Source of the DNA: Gyromitra esculenta
Lineage: Eukaryota; Ascomycota; Pezizomycetes; Pezizales; Discinaceae
Length of the DNA: 64,000 bases
Assembly (NCBI GenBank): GCA_038503075.1
Contig: JBCAML010000008.1
Location: 1,054,001-1,118,000, forward strand
Direction: 5' to 3'
Shown piece by piece: positions 37,616 to 45,702 of the stretch (positions are counted from its first letter, which is position 1; every line of letters begins with the position of its first letter). Both the position numbers and the translations under genes were made by a program. The notes beneath the pieces are model-generated. The model saw nothing but the letters and a program-made list of their open reading frames with translations. It did not search any database and had not been told where the DNA came from.

Positions 37616-40400
37616 AGTCGATTATCCCTTATTGTCGATATCTTGAACTCAAAGTTACCATCAAAATCCGATCAGACCGGTGTATTTAAATAGGAGATTA
37701 CCACCCACGACTCTGGGTAGTGGGGTAGTTGTATTTATGGACCTGAAATCAGAACGGTAGATCCGTTTCTAGAAGTAGCACCGATACGGTATGTTCCGCG
37801 GATCATGTCTTGGAGTCTATTATGATAGGTTGATTTCAAAGAACAAAAGTGTCGAATGCGCCCATGATAGGATAAGTGTTGCCATACCGTTGCACAATCC
37901 CGTGTTTGGGACAACGAGGCTGAGTTTTAGGTAACATTCGACTGCCAATCTGTCAACCTTGGGGAAGATAGCCATTGTGATAGGTACATCGCAGTCTATA
38001 CAACGCGGTACTTTATGTCTTATAGCATCTTTGCGCATCACCATACGTCGGATTAATTGTTGGGCATCCTTTGGGGAAAAGAATGATAGGTATGATTTTT
38101 TTAGGATCGGCGAGTGATAACCTATGCAATGGAAAGGCGGAGTAATGCCCGCGTTTATTTGCTTTTGTTCATATCGCCGAGTACATACAACTCTAATTTT
38201 ATGAAACTACATGTACTCGTAATCCCATGACGTTTTTAAAACGGGCCAGATTCGCATACAATAAAAACTGCCCTGAATCTACCTATTTTATATAGGATGC
38301 AGAGGTAGCCCGTCTTAAAAATGGTATGAGAGTACGAGTACAGTAACATCCTGGTCAGCGGTCTGGCTATAGGACCAACATGAAAAACTGTTGATCAAAT
38401 CAACTGCATATCCTGTAATTTGCTGCGCAGTTCTGTACTGAGCAGGTCTTGGCACCTATGAAATCCGACAACAAATAAGATCACAGAGCAGCGAATAGGG
38501 GGGAGAAAAAGCTATAAGTACATGTAAGTATTAATATGCGGAAAATAAAGTTCTACTGATTTGCATAACTGTCCTCTTACAAGTGTGTTAAAACTTCAAT
38601 CACCTGGCAGTCGTGCCTGATTTTTAAGATTTCCCGACAGGACCGTACCGTACCGCGACCGTGCATCATGTGGAAGACTACATGGCTCGTTAAGCATATC
38701 TGCTTCGTATGGTACTTTTTCTGTGGAGACGGAGCGTATGTATCTATGGTCTTTAGAGTTGCTGTTTTAGGGTAACTTCTCGAAATGAACTGCAATTGGA
38801 GGCGAGACTTTTAATGGGTTAGCCTGGGCTAGTATTCGTATAGGTCCTGACGCACCAACCAGTCTACCGAGCTTACAACTTCACCTGACTCAGTATAATT
38901 AGTCGTAGCGCAACGCTGGGCCTGTAGTGTATATGAGAGGTTGGAAACTTCCTTCTAATATAGTATAATACATGTATATATCGGATGAATGCATGTACAG
39001 ACGATATAGTGAGTGAGAGTGAGAGATTCCAATTGACCAAAATCTGTGTCGATGTTATAACAGGGGTATAAACCATAACGTAGTCCCGCACCCAGCCCCA
39101 TACCAGAAGCTCACTGTTCCCGTAACGGTATTCACGTTTAGTAAATATTGTAGATTCAAATTTATAGACCTGTATTGAGGTTCTTGTCTAGGCTAAATAA
39201 CCTGAGGATCCATCTCGATCCGCTTGTGGCACGGTTCAGCTACCATAAGTTGGCTCGGTACACTGGGAAGATACTTCGTTACCTAACCTACAGCTGGTAA
39301 ATGGGATATACTACCAATGGCCGAAATTGTGTGCGGCTGGTTCACGTAGGGTTGGAAATGTCAATATAGTGTATATACGAGCCATTTGATTTGCAATAAA
39401 TATCCTGTATCGATTTGGAATTGGCCCGCTGCTCGTTCATAATTTTTTTTAACGTGGAAGAGATAGCTTTGCGATTTCGAATTTCCCTGGCTCCCGCATT
39501 GGTACCAGGCCTAGGCGTTTTCTTTTACCGGCCTTTTGGTCTCGTCGCCAGACCTAACCTCCTGCTTTTAGTTAATACTACCTTCTCCGTAATAGGGCTC
39601 TTCCTCTAGGTCGATCTGGAGGCATCGGGGTATTCCGAAGTTTCCTGAAGTGATTGCCAGATAATATTTTCCGCGAGGTAGGCTTGGAAACATGAGTCAT
39701 ACATGTAGGAAATCATTTTTAAACCACTTGACGCATTTCGCCATGTCGTCACTGTTGTGCCGAATTTCTTAAATTTCATCACATTAGGATCAATACGTTC
39801 TAGTATTGGTTACGCGCAGTCCTTCACATTCAGTGATGACTCACCCTAAGTTAGTAAGAGCGTTGGTTGTGAATGGTTGGTCTCGTCATAAACCTCACTT
39901 TGCTTGAGCACGTACTTACAAGATAGAATTGAGCTGAGGCCGGGGAATAGGCTAGTCAAGATCGCAGACAATACTCTACATATTTATATTGTGCTTTCCC
40001 TAAAGAGTTTAGGCTAAGTATCCTATGTTTTGATAGGGCTTGGATTGCAATTGGGGATACCCGTACAACTATAAGTTTTTGTATGGGGTTGTTGTTTGTC
40101 GTTACATAAGATTTGAAGAAAGATCTTATTTCAGAAAGGTTAGGGGCCTCTATGAAGGTAATCTACTTTTTTTTTTTAGCTATGCAATATTTGGATACTT
40201 GGAGGTTATTTTAGGGATGGTGGTACGGCGAATGTCATACAATCACCAAAAAGGGTTGATTATTAGCGTTGCTTTTGACTTTTCAGAGTGATAGTTATCA
40301 AATCTCTAGCCAATTAAACATGATGCTAGTGACTAAGTGACGGTAGGTATCCGTGGTGTTCTTGGGGTTTCGATGTTTTTGTCTGTTGACCCGCTCTGCC
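37616..40400. other. AT-rich intergenic region upstream of U2
   Basis: No gene is seen. The region carries an inverted repeat (38212-38342, listed separately) and TACATGTA at 38208-38215, 38519-38526, 38969-38976 and 39700-39707. Frames are short and scattered, and the sequence is strongly TA-rich, as in decayed repeats. Confidence 0.55.
38212..38342. repeat. Inverted repeat with ~36-bp arms
   Basis: The left arm (about 38212-38247) and right arm (about 38307-38342) are imperfect reverse complements, sharing TGTACTCGTA at the outer end and TTTTTAA.ACGGGC at the inner end, around a ~60-bp spacer. It resembles a degenerate MITE. Its left end overlaps a TACATGTA site. Confidence 0.55.
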
Positions 40401-40440
40401 TCTTGGCATTGGCGCTAGTCTCTTGGCATTGGCGCTAGTC
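40401..40440. repeat. Perfect 20-bp tandem duplication upstream of U2
   Basis: TCTTGGCATTGGCGCTAGTC occurs twice head to tail with no mismatch, ending 78 bp upstream of the U2 TATA box. It could be a duplicated upstream element of the snRNA promoter or a chance duplication. Confidence 0.85.
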
Positions 40441-40517
40441 TCATGCTTGGCCCCGCCCCAGTCCAGAAGAAACTAGCCGTCGGCGAAATTTCTCTCGGCG
40501 CCAAGTAGTGCCAGCAG

Positions 40518-40525
40518 TATATAAA
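40518..40525 (+). promoter_or_regulatory. TATA box of the U2 snRNA gene
   Basis: TATATAAA lies about 40 bp upstream of the predicted U2 5' end (about 40558), followed by a CT-rich stretch. The spacing suits RNA polymerase II transcription, which is what makes U2 in fungi. Confidence 0.75.
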
Positions 40526-40557
40526 CCCCTCCCACTCCGCCCCTCTCTTCTCTCACC

Positions 40558-40810
40558 AGCTCTCTTTGCCTTTTGGCTTAGATCAAGTGTAGTATCTGTT
40601 CTTTTCAGTGTATGTCTTCCACCTTCCTTATTTCTCTTCACTCTTCTTGGGTCCAATCGCTGACTTTACTGCTTTCTAGTTAATCTCTGAAACGGTTCTA
40701 TGGAACCATTTATTGATTATACTTATTTTTGTACCTTGGAGCCGGGGCTCCGTGCTTGCACGTCCTTGGCTCCACTGTGTCACCGGTATTGCACTGTCTC
40801 CGGTTGACGC
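40558..40810 (+). ncRNA. U2: U2 spliceosomal RNA gene, interrupted by an intron
   Basis: After removal of 40610-40679 the RNA is about 183 nt and reads as U2. The 5' part has TTTGCCTTTTGGCTTAGATC, then CAAGTGTAGTATCTG, in which GTAGTA (40589-40594) pairs with intron branch sites. Stem IIa arms are TTTCAG and CTGAAA. Stem IIb is GGTTC/GAACC (40694-40698, 40703-40707). The Sm site ATTTTTG is at 40725-40731. Stem-loop III is TGGAGCC/GGCTCCA (40737-40743, 40768-40774), with an inner CGTGC/GCACG hairpin. Stem-loop IV is ACCGG/CCGGT (40782-40786, 40800-40804), with loop TATTGCACTGTCT matching the U2B''-binding loop. Every conserved element is present, so this looks functional rather than a pseudogene. 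The 5' and 3' ends are set by analogy with other U2 RNAs and may be off by a few bases. Each element was identified by eye. Confidence 0.93.
40610..40679 (+). other. mRNA-type spliceosomal intron inside U2 snRNA
   Basis: A 70-bp insert starts GTATGT (40610-40615), has a CTGAC branch site (branch A at about 40663) and ends TTTCTAG (acceptor AG at 40678-40679). These are the same signals as the protein-gene introns in this window. The flanks join to CTTTTCAGT-TTAATCTCTG, which is exactly the universal U2 sequence. The insert falls in the apical loop of stem IIa, 15 nt after the GTAGTA branch-site recognition sequence, equivalent to after nucleotide 53 in human U2 numbering. Confidence 0.9.
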
Positions 40811-43400
40811 GACTTTTTCCTTGCTTCCCTGGCCGCTGGCGAGGGAGCAATGAATGAGTTGTTCCGTGTTTTGACTTTCAGTGACCCATAAGGTTCTGCA
40901 TCTGTTTTTAATTGACCTTGAATTTTTGAGTGCTCAAGCTCCAGTATTCTTTCGGAAATCTCAATCAGTTTCAATGTTTTAATTTATTATCTGTTTCTAT
41001 TTCGAATTTCTGATCCTTATTTATTGGCTTTGGTGGGTGAAGCTTCATTGCTATGACTGCACATATCCGAGCACTAGTTTCACTCTCATCAGAGAGTAAT
41101 CTTGCCTGTGGAGTCAACTAATGACGAGTATAACTTGATCCGACAATATGGCAATCCTGTCTTATAATTTTATCAAATTCCCGCCGGTATGCGCACGTGC
41201 AGTAGGCTAGTGATCAAACGCTCACGCATCAGCCCGTGTTACCTCACGACCGCTCCCTTCGTGTTCTTGCAATACTCTTATATGGCTACTATGGCTACTA
41301 CTATCACCATATACTATTAGACCACGCGAACACCTCTTAGCATTCATCCCTGCTTCTGGTCAAACTGTCTCACGGGCTATTACCACATCATCGTCATCGC
41401 CATCAACTTCTCAGCAATAATTTCTCTGGGGATGTCCTAGCTTACAGGGTGCCCGCTACTCACTTCTCCGCCGTCACTCAACCCCTCCCCTTACTCTAAT
41501 ACTCCTCCAGAATATTGTGTGCCTTATTATCTCCATAGTCAATGCCATCCAACGTCCACCCTACTCGCTTTTCCAGATTCTCTTGCATGTCATCACCCTC
41601 TGCCTCCCAGCACAAAATCGGGGAAAAGTTACCCTACGCCCTTAGCATAGGCTTTGTAGAGTTCCTCAGAGGCAACTCGACTTCAGGCTGGACTCAATCG
41701 CGACCTTATCATCGACTACTCCGAGGCTGTTATCTCCGAAGCTGGAAAAGAGTTAATTAACATGGTGTACGGCGTGCTTGGGCCGGCGCCAACTCTGCTG
41801 CTGACGAAGAAGAAGACGCGGACCATGAGGCTACCGGCGAAGAAAGCGCCAGCTGGGGAGAAGCACGTAGAGGGGAAATGAGAGCATGTCATCTCACAAT
41901 GGATAAATTAGTGAACTCGAATGCTCGTATGCTAGCCTCTAAGCTTACTTTTCGATCATTACTGCTCCAGGCGTTTGCTTCAAAGTATCTTCGTTTTGGT
42001 AGGATTTGATACGTGTGATAGGGAGTCACTTGAGGCGAGCGAGGGGGTTTAGGCCTCGAGATGGCTCGTGGATTTCAGGGCTTGCCTTGAGGCACTTGAG
42101 GGATTGAACACTCTTTTTGGGAGGAATGAATATCACTACCTATAGTACATATAGTGCATTGCAAGACATATTGAGGTTCCTGGATAGGAAACGACGAGTA
42201 TAATCCTACTAAAGGGGCCGAATTTAGGGTTATATCATGGGAAGAGGAATTTGAGGGGAGGAAGTCTCGCATTTTTATACTATCCTAGATGCTCGAGCGG
42301 CCGTGCTTCATGGCTTACACTGACTTAGTATTTCAAGTTACTGTTCCTGAGGTACAGGTTTGCAAATGTGGGGCCTCCGATTCCGGAGCAGCTGGGGATG
42401 GATGCCGACGCTAAGAACGACGAAAATGACGAGTACGATGAAAACGAAGTCGACAACATGGTAGAGGAATGCAACGATGATTAAGAACAGCAATGGAAAG
42501 AGGGAGGGGGGAAGGAGGCGGAGAAGGAAATGACTTATTTCTCTGAATTGAGTGTAGTCTGATTCATGGCATCTTAGTCGCAGATGATCGCATAGCTGCT
42601 GCTGAAATTTTTTGTTGTCGTTAACTATTCCCAGCCCAGTATCATGGTGGAAGAAAATATCAACTAAAGTTGATGGGGAGTAACTTGGTTTTATAGTTTA
42701 TGACTTTTACAGTTCCGAAATAGTATAATTTAGATCACTGGGAGTTGATATCACCCTCCCTCCTTTTTATTTAGCTGTGGCCTACATGTACTCTAAGTGG
42801 ATGTTAAATAGCATCAAGTTTCATTCCTTATTCATGTTCTTGTAACACCGCTACTAGTCCTGTGATTCTCTTGTTCCCATATTAGTTTTAAGCGATCTCC
42901 ACTGATCTTTTTCACGTGCGCGAATTTTATAGGGGGTCGATGGTTTTAGTGATCGAAAACATCCTAAATGACCAAAACCAAGACTTCAGTACCCATCGCC
43001 ATTCGTGATTGATAAGTCTTGGCACAAGGTTCCGACTGATCCATTATATACCAGTTGATCTAAAATACTGGTGGATTACTTACCATGGCCGTCCTCTCCA
43101 CTACTCGTCTCAAATATAACGAACACGTTTCAGCAGACCAACAACGTAGCTAAAGCTGGATATGGAGAATATATCTAATCTTTTAGGCGGACTTTCGCTG
43201 ACCCTGAAGGGTAGGGTAACTATATGTAGTTCTCAGTGGCTGTCTTGCTAAATAGGGTAACAGTCGCCTACTAAGTTCAATGATTGCATTCAACTGACAG
43301 TATTGCTGATAACATGTGGTATTATACTAAGTTTGTTACACATCCTGACACGAGGCATTAGTTTATTCCACAGTTCTTCGTTTTGTGTGATAGGAGCTTT
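40811..43400. other. Intergenic region downstream of U2
   Basis: No gene is convincing. Two locally GC-richer patches read as short charged peptides: an ATG frame of 39 codons at 41762-41881 (Lys-rich, TLLLTKKKTRTMRLPAKK) and an open stretch ending at a TAA at about 42484 (acidic, DADAKNDENDEYDENE). Both could be remnants of one decayed gene. TACATGTA occurs at 42783-42790. The rest is AT-rich. Confidence 0.45.
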
Positions 43401-43592
43401 TTAAAATGGTGAAATCAGGTGCTCGCCAACTCCGTATGTAGGATCCCTATATATCTGTAGAGCAGTGCCATCTGGAGCGTAGGTATGAACACTAAGGATG
43501 TTAAAGATCCCGCTCTCTGCGAATACCGCAAAGTCGTGATCTAAACCTTCGACTGGCTCATAAAAGTGGACAATTATTCCGCCTGACGTCAT
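43401..43592 (-). CDS. Small ORF of 63 aa, unrecognised
   Basis: An ATG frame on the minus strand with protein-like composition: GGIIVHFYEPVEGLDHDF, AVFAESGIFNILSVHTYA, PDGTALQIYRDPTYGVGE. Its base composition is less AT-biased than the flanks. I recognise no family. It may be a real small protein, one exon of a larger gene, or a fragment of a decayed one. A CRE-like palindrome TGACGTCA (43584-43591) overlaps its start codon, which argues somewhat against the ATG being the natural start. Confidence 0.3.
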   Translation of the reverse strand: MTSGGIIVHFYEPVEGLDHDFAVFAESGIFNILSVHTYAPDGTALQIYRDPTYGVGEHLISPF

Positions 43593-43964
43593 AATTGCTT
43601 GATATTTGAGGAAGTGCGTGCGTTTCTAGATATACAAAAAATAAAGGTCAAAGTCCAAAAAAAAATTGACTGAGTAACGCAGGCTAGAAGTTGTGGAGGT
43701 CAGAATCCGTCTGGGTCTCTTAAAAAAGACTCCAGCCCGACTACACAAAACCTCTGTTTTCAAAAGCCTCAACAGACAGACTCGTAGGAAAGAAATCAGC
43801 AAAATAGGGATAACGCCTCGTGATAGAAAATAAAACAGCAAAAAGTAGTAAAAATCTAAAACTACAAATTCATGCCCCTCAAATATTCTTACACCCACTT
43901 CTCCCCGCAATCATATATCAATTCCGGAAGTCAACTACCATCGCCACCCAAACAACCAACATCA
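43593..43964. other. Short intergenic stretch downstream of CWC27
   Basis: This is the probable 3' UTR side of the CWC27 gene (transcribed leftwards). It is A-rich with no supported frame. Confidence 0.5.
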
Positions 43965-45702
43965 CTACCTTCGCTCCCTTCCAGGCCTACTCCCGCTCCC
44001 GCTCCCGCTCCCGCTACCACTTCCCTTCGGTCCCCCCTCCTCCCTCCTCCGATCCCACTCCCTTCCTCCCCCAGCGCCTCCAAACCCTTTCCCAAAAGCT
44101 CCCCTGCCACCACCCTTCCGCTTCTCCTTATTCTCACCTAGTATCTCCTTCTCCTTCTCCCGCGGATCAATCACGCTCAACTCCTCATTCTTCTTCTTCC
44201 ACGTCAGATCCTTCCCCAGCCGATCCTTCTCAAAACTCAGCGTGTGCGACCACAGCTTATCGCTAGCCTCAGGCGACGGGCTCCGGCCCGCGCGATCGTA
44301 GAGTCCGCACGAAGCGCAATTGGGGATGAAATGCAGATCACACAGATTCGACTCTGGGTCTTCGTCGAGAATGTCTTGTTTAGTGGCAGGGATGAGGGAG
44401 ATGGAGGTGGCGTCGGCGGCGGTGGGGTCAACCATAGATGTGTCTTCGGCGGGTACGAAGGTGGCGGAAGCGAGCTTGTTTTGGAAGCGCTTTAGTGCTG
44501 CGATGGCGGCATCGTCGTCGGCGTCGGTTTCTCGGGCTTTTCCGCGTTTGCGTTTGCGCCCTTTGACGGATGTTGGGGGGAGCATTTCGCGTTGGATTGC
44601 GAGGAGGGATTTTTTGGGTTTTTTGGTGGTGGTTGTGGTGGCGTCTTCGGTGGAGCGGGCACGGAGGGAAGCTTGGAGGGCTGCAATCTGGGCGTTAGTT
44701 TGGGCGAGGGCGGATGGGGGTTTGCGGGGCTCGGGGGAGGAGGAAGGACTGCGTGTAGGGGCAGCATTGGGGTTGGGGTCGGGTTTAGGAGGTTGAGGGG
44801 GCTCGGCCAGGGAGTCTGTATCGGTGGCGGAGGTGATGGTTTCGGTGGTGGTGATGGGGTTTTTGGAACCTGTTTTTGAGGGTTTGGAGACTTCTCTCTT
44901 CTCGATAAGGGTGTCGTCCAAGGGTGCAGCAACAACTAGGCGGGTGTTGAACTTGGGTTTCTTGGATATGGGAGCTGCGGGCTCATCACCCTCATCACCG
45001 CCAAAAGACAGCAGCGCCTTCCCACCCTTCTTTTTCTTTGCAGCAGCCTTCTTTGCTTTCGCCGCATCCTCCAACGTCTCCGTCTTCTTGACCACCTCTC
45101 GCGGTTTCATGTCCTCGAAGGGATTAATCACCACTTCCGCTCCCAAAATCTTGACCGGATACACTGGACGCTCTGTCTCCTCTTCACACTCACCCTGCCC
45201 CATCCTGACCAGATTATACAATGTATCACCCACAATCTTCCCAAACATAGTATTCCTCCCGGTCAATTCCTTCGTGTCCCCAAGTGTCAAGAAGAACTGC
45301 GAGCCATTGTCATTCTTGCGTCCCGAGTTTGCCATCCCAACCAATCCACGGCGATTAAACCGTAACCGAGAGTGGAACTCGTCAGCGAAGAGACCGCCAT
45401 CGTAGATCGCTTCACCGCCGTGCCCGGTGCCAGTGGGATCACCACCTTGGAGGATGAAGTCGGGGACGAGCCGGTGAAAGATTGTGTCATTGTAGTAGCC
45501 GTCGAGACAGAGCTGTAGGAAGTTGCGAGAGGTGAGGGGGGTTTGGCCAGCCCAGAGCTCGATGTCAAGGTCGCCATGTGTGGTTTTGAGGATTACTTTA
45601 GCACTGGAGAGGGTTAGCTGGGTTAGGGGATTGGGGATTTGGGATTAAGGAATTAAGTAGGGCTTACTTTGTTTGCGGCTCGAGATTGTAGCCGGATGCC
45701 AT
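43965..45702 (-). CDS. CWC27: Spliceosomal cyclophilin-type protein Cwc27
   Basis: Two exons on the minus strand (45702-45668 and 45603-43965) give 557 aa. The tiny first exon encodes MASGYNLEPQT plus two bases. The second opens with NAKVILKTTHGDLDIELW. The cyclophilin domain spans about 12-175, with FHRLVPDFILQGGDPTGTG and NGSQFFLTLG. The equivalents of the cyclophilin A catalytic residues R55, F60 and Q63 are kept (R56, F61, Q64). W121 is replaced by Glu (E124) and H126 by Asn (N129), so isomerase activity is probably weak, as in other Cwc27 proteins. After the domain come the expected INPFEDMKPREV segment, a long charged linker, and a C-terminal region with IPNCASCGLYD and WSHTLSFEKDRLGKDLTWKKK. 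The protein ends in a (GS)n repeat from a GCTCCC hexanucleotide array. Cwc27 acts with Cwc22 in activated spliceosomes. Confidence 0.92.
45604..45667 (-). other. Intron of CWC27
   Basis: A 64-bp intron with donor GTAAGC and acceptor TCCAG, phase 2. It restores the Cwc27-typical EPQTNAKVIL junction. The first exon has only 35 coding bases. Confidence 0.88.

What the first reader, a model, noticed from the sequence alone, without database searches (positions are those of the whole stretch)
40558..40810. U2 snRNA gene split by a spliceosomal intron in stem-loop IIa
Seen directly: all conserved U2 parts (GTAGTA branch-recognition, stems IIa and IIb, Sm site ATTTTTG, stem-loops III and IV), but with 70 bp (40610-40679) inserted after CTTTTCAGT. 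The insert has GTATGT, CTGAC and TTTCTAG, the same signals as protein-gene introns here, and its removal gives the exact universal U2 sequence. Known: mRNA-type introns occur in U6 of Schizosaccharomyces and other fungi, and one was reported in U2 of a basidiomycete yeast (Rhodotorula); I do not know of a U2 intron described in Pezizomycotina. Inference: U2 is required to splice its own precursor, so the gene forms a self-dependent loop, and the insertion in loop IIa would block the IIa/IIc switch until spliced. How such an intron was acquired (reverse splicing into U2 in the active spliceosome, near where U2 contacts the branch site) is an attractive hypothesis.
Basis: partly seen in the sequence, partly recalled or inferred. 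Interest (0 to 1): 0.93.

Follow-up and report, generated by a model that had tools for sequence, protein, structure and literature searches.

The report
Introns split every U2 snRNA gene
In this cup-fungus genome all four detected genes for U2, an RNA the splicing machine needs, are interrupted by introns that only the splicing machine itself should be able to remove, so the cell seems to need U2 in order to make U2.

Summary
In detail: a U2 snRNA gene at 40557-40812 (+) is split by 70 nt at 40610-40679 with GT-AG ends and a CTGAC branch site.

The genome search strengthens it. Four U2 genes were found, all split in loop IIa at nearly the same base; one also has an intron in stem-loop I. No intronless U2 turned up by covariance model or junction pattern. 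Intron interiors have diverged to about shuffle level, yet donor, branch and acceptor signals are intact in 5 of 5, and excision restores U2. All four share promoter elements with four of five U1 genes. U1, U4, U5 and U6 hits show no intron-sized insertion.

So these look like real U2 genes with spliceosomal introns in a Pezizales-like ascomycete. Splicing is inferred; no RNA data.

mRNA-type introns in U6, and one in U2 of Rhodotorula hasegawae, are known. New here: the ascomycete host, every copy split, and the stem-loop I site.

The parts
40479..40505 (+). upstream element GTCGGCGAAATTTCTCTCGGCGCCAAG, similar block in all 4 U2 and 4 of 5 U1 genes of this genome
40518..40525 (+). TATA box (TATATAAA)
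40557..40609 (+). U2 exon 1: stem-loop I, branch-recognition GTAGTA, 5' strand of stem IIa
40589..40594 (+). GTAGTA branch-site recognition sequence
40610..40679 (+). 70-nt spliceosomal intron in loop IIa (after nt 53 of the A1 alignment, human-like numbering)
40610..40615 (+). 5' splice site GTATGT
40660..40664 (+). branch site CTGAC; 16 nt of intron follow the branch A
40677..40679 (+). 3' splice site TAG
40680..40812 (+). U2 exon 2: 3' part of loop and stem IIa, IIb, Sm site, stem-loops III and IV
40715..40723 (+). GAUUAUACU, 3' strand of helix IIc; 5' strand is 40607-40609 joined to 40680-40685
40725..40731 (+). Sm site ATTTTTG

Best explanation
The window holds one of four U2 snRNA genes of a Pezizales-like ascomycete, each with a normal-looking snRNA promoter. 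Every copy carries a major-class (GT-AG) spliceosomal intron in loop IIa, and one copy carries a second in stem-loop I. Each precursor is transcribed, and the existing spliceosome, which itself contains U2, removes the intron(s) to give a normal U2 (186-187 nt over the part compared). The loop IIa intron is probably older than the U2 gene duplications. With the intron in place stem IIa hardly forms in the predicted fold and the RNA favours a IIc-like form; splicing restores IIa, the form used for branch-site engagement (recalled), so unspliced U2 is probably inactive. Shown: gene structure, paralogues, signals, no intronless copy detected in the assembly. Inferred: that it is spliced, the polymerase, the conformational effect, and self-dependence in the cell.
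For: RF00004 finds 4 U2 genes in the 47.1 Mb assembly, all above cut-off over positions 1-192. All four are split in loop IIa: CAGT|GTATGT...TAG|TTAATC in three, CAG|GTGTGT...TAG|TTTAATA in the fourth, whose boundary lies one base over and still gives an intact U2. Copy U2c also has CCTTTTG|GTAAGT...CTAAC...ACAG|GCTTAG in stem-loop I, downstream of its promoter. The U2 core AGATCAAGTGTAGTATCTGTTCTT at up to 3 mismatches occurs 4 times, reversed control 0. The spliced junction at up to 3 mismatches hits only a tRNA-Phe gene. Spliced sequence of copies a-c is 100/100 identical over the first 100 nt, while intron interiors align no better than shuffles in 5 of 6 pairs (36-181 of 300 shuffles reach the score; a-d 13 of 300); 5 of 5 introns keep the donor, a CTRAY branch site with 11-19 nt after the A, and AG. 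On a structure taken from the U2a fold, cells paired across the four copies are SLI 24/24, IIa 24/24, IIb 19/20, SLIII 56/60, SLIV 44/44, with both-sided changes at three SLIII pairs and one SLIV pair. IIc pairs 32/36 cells with one both-sided change (C-G to A-U); registers slid by 1-6 give 10-24. The upstream element and TATA box are shared with 4 of 5 U1 genes.
Against: No RNA-seq or RT-PCR could be examined. The genome search scored only 46 of 977 candidates, and an intronless U2 in unassembled DNA cannot be excluded. U2d has a changed loop I (CCAATTGG) and one broken IIb pair, and may be less active; unpaired SLIII cells are three at the terminal pair (b, c, d) and one more in b. Four sequences are few for covariation. 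Intron-like strings in the window are not enriched over shuffles. The two protein-gene introns modelled by homology have donors GTAGGG and GTAAGC, so GTATGT is not shown to be the typical donor here.
Confidence: 0.94

Rival explanations
1. The inserts are not removed: these are U2 variants with an expanded loop IIa (and in one copy an expanded stem-loop I) kept in the mature RNA.
For: Helices outside the insert still fold, and the covariance model tolerates the insertion. The Sm site is in exon 2, so unspliced RNA could assemble a core particle (inference).
Against: The loop IIa inserts differ in length (52, 70, 80, 85 nt) and their interiors are mostly at shuffle level, yet GT, branch and AG signals survive in 5 of 5 inserts. 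The predicted unspliced fold loses stem IIa (mean pair probability 0.00-0.08 against 0.70-0.88 spliced). The stem-loop I insert would split the 3' strand of that stem.
Confidence: 0.02
2. The four split copies are minor genes or pseudogenes, and an intact U2 gene outside the assembly supplies the cell.
For: Assemblies can drop copies, and the genome search scores only the best candidates.
Against: Promoter elements in 4 of 4; 100/100 identity of the 5' exon region in three copies on three contigs despite diverged introns; both-sided changes in SLIII, SLIV and IIc. The junction pattern scan of the assembly found no spliced-type copy.
Confidence: 0.03
3. The inserts are removed by another pathway (tRNA-type splicing endonuclease or minor spliceosome), so there is no self-dependence.
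For: No direct assay of the pathway was possible.
Against: Donors GTATGT, GTGTGT and GTAAGT, CTRAY branch sites and TAG or CAG ends are major-spliceosome signals. U12 snRNA was not found, but that search rang in no control either, so it shows little.
Confidence: 0.01

Closest known systems
U2 snRNA intron of Rhodotorula hasegawae (Takahashi 1993; now Erythrobasidium hasegawianum, Basidiomycota)
   Same: An mRNA-type intron in a U2 snRNA gene (title seen only in the reference list of PMC2586383). The abstract as I recall it: one intron of about 60 bp just downstream of the branch-recognition region, with introns in U6 as well.
   Different: Here: a different phylum, four U2 genes all split, a second intron in stem-loop I of one copy, and U6 without an intron. 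Whether the loop IIa position is the same base could not be checked; the paper is not held.
mRNA-type U6 introns of Schizosaccharomyces pombe and other fungi (Tani and Ohshima 1989, 1991; Canzler 2016; titles seen in reference lists)
   Different: Both U6 genes found in this genome are uninterrupted; U2 is the split one.
Introns in fungal U3 snoRNA genes (PMC5832005, passages seen)
   Same: Spliceosomal introns in a structured small RNA; reported there in the vast majority of Pezizomycotina analysed, and some genomes have both intron-bearing and intronless copies.
   Different: U3 is not part of the spliceosome, so no self-dependence arises. Here one U3 copy looks intronless and another has an intron.

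Membership tests
U2 snRNA (Rfam RF00004) | Covariance-model score over cut-off, full length | tested here: met
   128.1 bits against 46, positions 1-192 of 192, with one large insertion
U2 snRNA (Rfam RF00004) | GTAGTA, Sm site, stem-loops I, IIa, IIb, III, IV after excision | tested here: met
U2 snRNA (Rfam RF00004) | snRNA promoter shared with other snRNA genes of the genome | tested here: met
   Similar upstream element and TATA in 4 of 4 U2 and 4 of 5 U1 genes; not in the same form at the 4 U4 genes or at U5
Major-class (U2-type) spliceosomal intron | GT-AG ends with excision restoring the mature sequence | tested here: met
   5 of 5 introns in 4 genes
Major-class (U2-type) spliceosomal intron | Branch site CTRAY close upstream of the 3' end | tested here: met
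   11, 16, 16, 17 and 19 nt follow the branch A in the five introns
Major-class (U2-type) spliceosomal intron | Removal in vivo by the major spliceosome | not testable with these tools
   No RNA data on hand
Minor-class (U12-type) intron | RTATCCTT donor (consensus recalled) | tested here: not met
   Donors are GTATGT x3, GTGTGT, GTAAGT
R. hasegawae U2 intron (same insertion event) | Same insertion position and shared descent | not testable with these tools
   Paper not held; no relatives of G000 held for search
U2 pseudogene | Decayed promoter, Sm site or stems | tested here: not met
   U2d shows a few changes

The most novel reading that the evidence does not exclude
U2 in this lineage is obligately self-produced: every U2 gene needs splicing, so a cell can make U2 only from inherited U2. 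The loop IIa intron also acts as a conformational lock, holding pre-U2 in a IIc-like form with stem IIa broken until it is spliced, so unspliced U2 cannot enter pre-spliceosomes. The loop could set U2 dosage or create an all-or-none state of splicing capacity.
Probability: 0.3. Interest if true: 0.82.

Novelty: new variant of a known kind. Interest (0 to 1): 0.66.

Why it matters
If spliced as inferred, U2 snRNA here depends entirely on U2-dependent splicing, a closed loop in a core cell machine with no intronless backup detected in the assembly. It also gives new data for the old proposal that introns in snRNAs mark contacts made inside the spliceosome (reverse splicing): two sites, loop IIa and stem-loop I, on either side of the branch-recognition region, and an intron shifted by one base between paralogues. 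Comparing related Pezizomycetes would date each gain, and the loop could be tested by replacing a U2 gene with an intronless one.

Tried and rejected
Intact U2 copy: sought with RF00004 (46 of 977 candidates scored), the spliced junction at up to 3 mismatches and the U2 core at up to 3 mismatches; none found. The single junction hit, L017, lies in a tRNA-Phe gene.

Splice-signal enrichment in the window: 15 intron-like strings against a shuffle mean of 16.2 and 14 in the reversed window, so no support from that count. I joined the flanks of 6 of those 15 strings; 3 of 6 gave an open frame, of which 32170 (-) (GTATGT, CTAAC, TAG) most clearly restores an interrupted one. Spliced alignment of two neighbouring genes to Morchella proteins gave one intron each, with CTGAC or CTAAC near the end but donors GTAGGG and GTAAGC.

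Donor of the stem-loop I intron: a DNA search of its 108 nt over the genome finds only itself, so no recent reverse-splicing donor is visible. The loop IIa introns were not searched this way.

Other organisms: U2 core patterns in viral contigs gave 0. In genome contigs the core gave 4 stretches with 5 matches. They hold three distinct U2 genes, apparently of eukaryotic contaminants (L018; L019; L020, with L021 on the same contig probably showing the 5' part of the same gene), and one further match on L020 that scores as no U2. None of the three has an insert in loop IIa. They are not shown to be fungal, so the age of the intron in Pezizomycetes is open.

U12 was not found, but nothing rang anywhere, so it shows little.

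The first try at IIa pair probabilities was in the wrong register and was redone. In one search inserts with shuffled interiors (60 per copy) also nearly abolish IIa (means 0.02-0.13) and favour IIc (means 0.49-0.81), so the conformational effect is generic to an insert here and is no evidence of selection for it. Folded precursors of U2c had the stem-loop I intron removed; with both introns in, IIa is 0.00 and IIc 0.83. In U2c the covariance-model hit starts inside the stem-loop I intron; its true exon 1 was placed by eye from the other copies.

Literature: 10 searches of an open-licence library showed no report of a U2 intron in Ascomycota. I saw listings, some cut (20 of 495 papers; 20 of 770, mostly off topic). 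Most older and subscription papers are not in it, so this is not proof of absence.

Full report
What is there. The window (contig 8 of a 47.1 Mb, 23-contig assembly) carries a U2 snRNA gene on the + strand. Rfam RF00004 aligns all 192 model positions to 40556-40818 with 128.1 bits and one large insertion in loop IIa. Removing 40610-40679 (GTATGT...CTGAC...TCTAG, 70 nt) joins CTTTTCAGT to TTAATCTCTGAAA. The result aligns without a gap through stem-loop IIa to three U2 genes found in bacterial genome bins, where they are presumably eukaryotic contaminants.

Which organism. The neighbouring CWC27 gene is 63% identical to that of Morchella snyderi over 98% of the query, the best listed hit with a species name. 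The deoxyhypusine synthase is 80% identical to Morchella sextelata over 64% of the query, the highest identity among the named hits listed, although three longer plant-labelled records rank among the top eight by score at 57-59% identity. Morchella is in Pezizales, Pezizomycotina. So this is a Pezizales-like ascomycete, not shown to be any named species.

The rest of the genome. RF00004 finds four U2 genes: U2a (this window), U2b (C1), U2c (C20) and U2d (C17); 46 of 977 candidates were scored. All four are split in loop IIa, by 70, 85, 52 and 80 nt. U2c has a further 108-nt intron in stem-loop I (GTAAGT...TACTAAC...ACAG) between nt 19 and 20 in human-like numbering. A pattern scan for the U2 core at up to 3 mismatches finds these four places and no others, reversed control zero. 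A scan for the spliced junction finds no intronless copy (its only hit is in a tRNA-Phe gene). The other snRNA hits show no intron-sized insertion by matched length: U6 2 of 2, U1 5 of 5, U4 4 of 4, U5 1 of 1. I read the alignments of both U6, four of five U1, all four U4 and U5. All five U1 hits score below the Rfam cut-off of 69.5 (67.3 to 38.5 bits).

Why the inserts are taken as spliced introns. Four lines agree. First, five of five inserts have GT-AG ends exactly where excision restores U2, and U2d's donor lies one base upstream yet its acceptor is matched so that the product is still right. Second, the loop IIa intron interiors have little detectable similarity (5 of 6 pairs within shuffle range; a-d reached by 13 of 300 shuffles), while donor, CTRAY and AG survive in all five introns. 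In contrast the first 100 nt of spliced sequence are identical in three copies on three contigs. Recent conversion of the whole gene would have made the introns alike, so selection on exons and splice signals is the simpler reading. Third, the copies keep their helices, with both-sided changes at three SLIII pairs and one SLIV pair; helix IIc, whose 5' strand is cut by the intron, shows a C-G to A-U double change. This rests on four sequences and a structure taken from one of them, so it is modest evidence. Fourth, all four genes have a similar upstream element and TATA box at the same distance, also found in four of five U1 genes, so they look like normal snRNA genes. The U2c promoter lies upstream of exon 1, so its stem-loop I intron is inside the transcript.

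How it probably works. The gene is transcribed like other snRNA genes, and spliceosomes already present remove the intron(s). Predicted folding gives stem IIa a mean pair probability of 0.00-0.08 with the loop IIa intron in and 0.70-0.88 after splicing. The IIc core goes the other way, 0.71-0.90 with the intron and 0.03-0.24 without, in four of four copies. In the window's precursor the acceptor AG takes the place of the exon's AG in this helix. From recalled work on yeast U2, IIa is needed for branch-site engagement, so unspliced U2 is probably not usable. Inserts with shuffled interiors behave much the same, so this is a consequence of the site and not evidence of tuned regulation. The window precursor's minimum-energy fold also pairs GUAGUA with UACUGC just after the branch site of its own intron; I did not test this in the other copies.

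History. The shared site suggests that the loop IIa intron predates the four-gene family or spread with it; two separate insertions one base apart are not excluded. The stem-loop I intron is in one copy only: gained there or lost from three. U2d has the loop UUUAAUAU seen in two of the three outside U2 genes, a-c share UUUAAUCU, and the one-base offset separates the same two groups. No second copy of the stem-loop I intron was found in the assembly. Reverse splicing stays a hypothesis.

What is known. mRNA-type introns in U6 of fission yeast and other fungi are well known (passages in PMC10484740; PMC5832005). The latter states that U3 and U6 were so far the only small structured RNAs known to be often interrupted. 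A U2 intron in Rhodotorula hasegawae was published in 1993; I saw only its title in a reference list and recall its abstract. Ten library searches showed no U2 intron in an ascomycete, in a library that lacks most older journals. So this is a variant of a known kind: new host phylum, every detected copy split, a second site in stem-loop I, U6 intact.

Limits. No RNA data, no related fungal genomes, no raw reads. Splicing and self-dependence are inferred.

Noticed in passing
L016 (G000:C3:2403273-2403382 +), compared with L005 and L006: The only U5 gene found lacks the U1/U2-type upstream element and TATA box. Like both U6 genes it has CAAAAACT or CAAAAAACT about 20 nt upstream and a tRNA-type B box downstream (GTTCAAATC at about +116; U6 at about +124 in both copies); the same B-box string also occurs at about -33. 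Its Sm site reads AATCTTTGG, breaking the usual T5 run. It looks like a U5 gene under a U6-type Pol III promoter, which I do not know from fungi. B-box matches alone are expected by chance here (2 seen, 1.94 expected in the locus)..
   Followed up: partly
L003 (G000:C20), U2c: U2c carries a second spliceosomal intron, in stem-loop I, not seen in the other three copies.
   Followed up: yes
L004 (G000:C17), U2d: U2d has a changed stem-loop I loop (CCAATTGG), a broken IIb pair and an intron boundary one base upstream: possibly a diverged U2 variant.
   Followed up: partly
L022 and L023 (U3 snoRNA genes): One U3 copy (match 232 nt) looks intronless, another has an intron (GTTCGT...CTAAC...TAG); the two others (L024, L025) have similar extra length but their alignments were not read.
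   Followed up: partly
L011 (G000:C2): A fifth U1-like gene scores low (38.5 bits) and lacks the shared upstream element and TATATAA box: perhaps a U1 pseudogene or variant.
   Followed up: no
window 43977-45702 (-): About 3 kb from the U2 gene lies CWC27, a spliceosomal cyclophilin, with one modelled intron near its start.
   Followed up: no
window 37620-43600: Around U2 there is no ORF longer than 83 aa, so the gene sits in several kb without convincing protein-coding frames.
   Followed up: no
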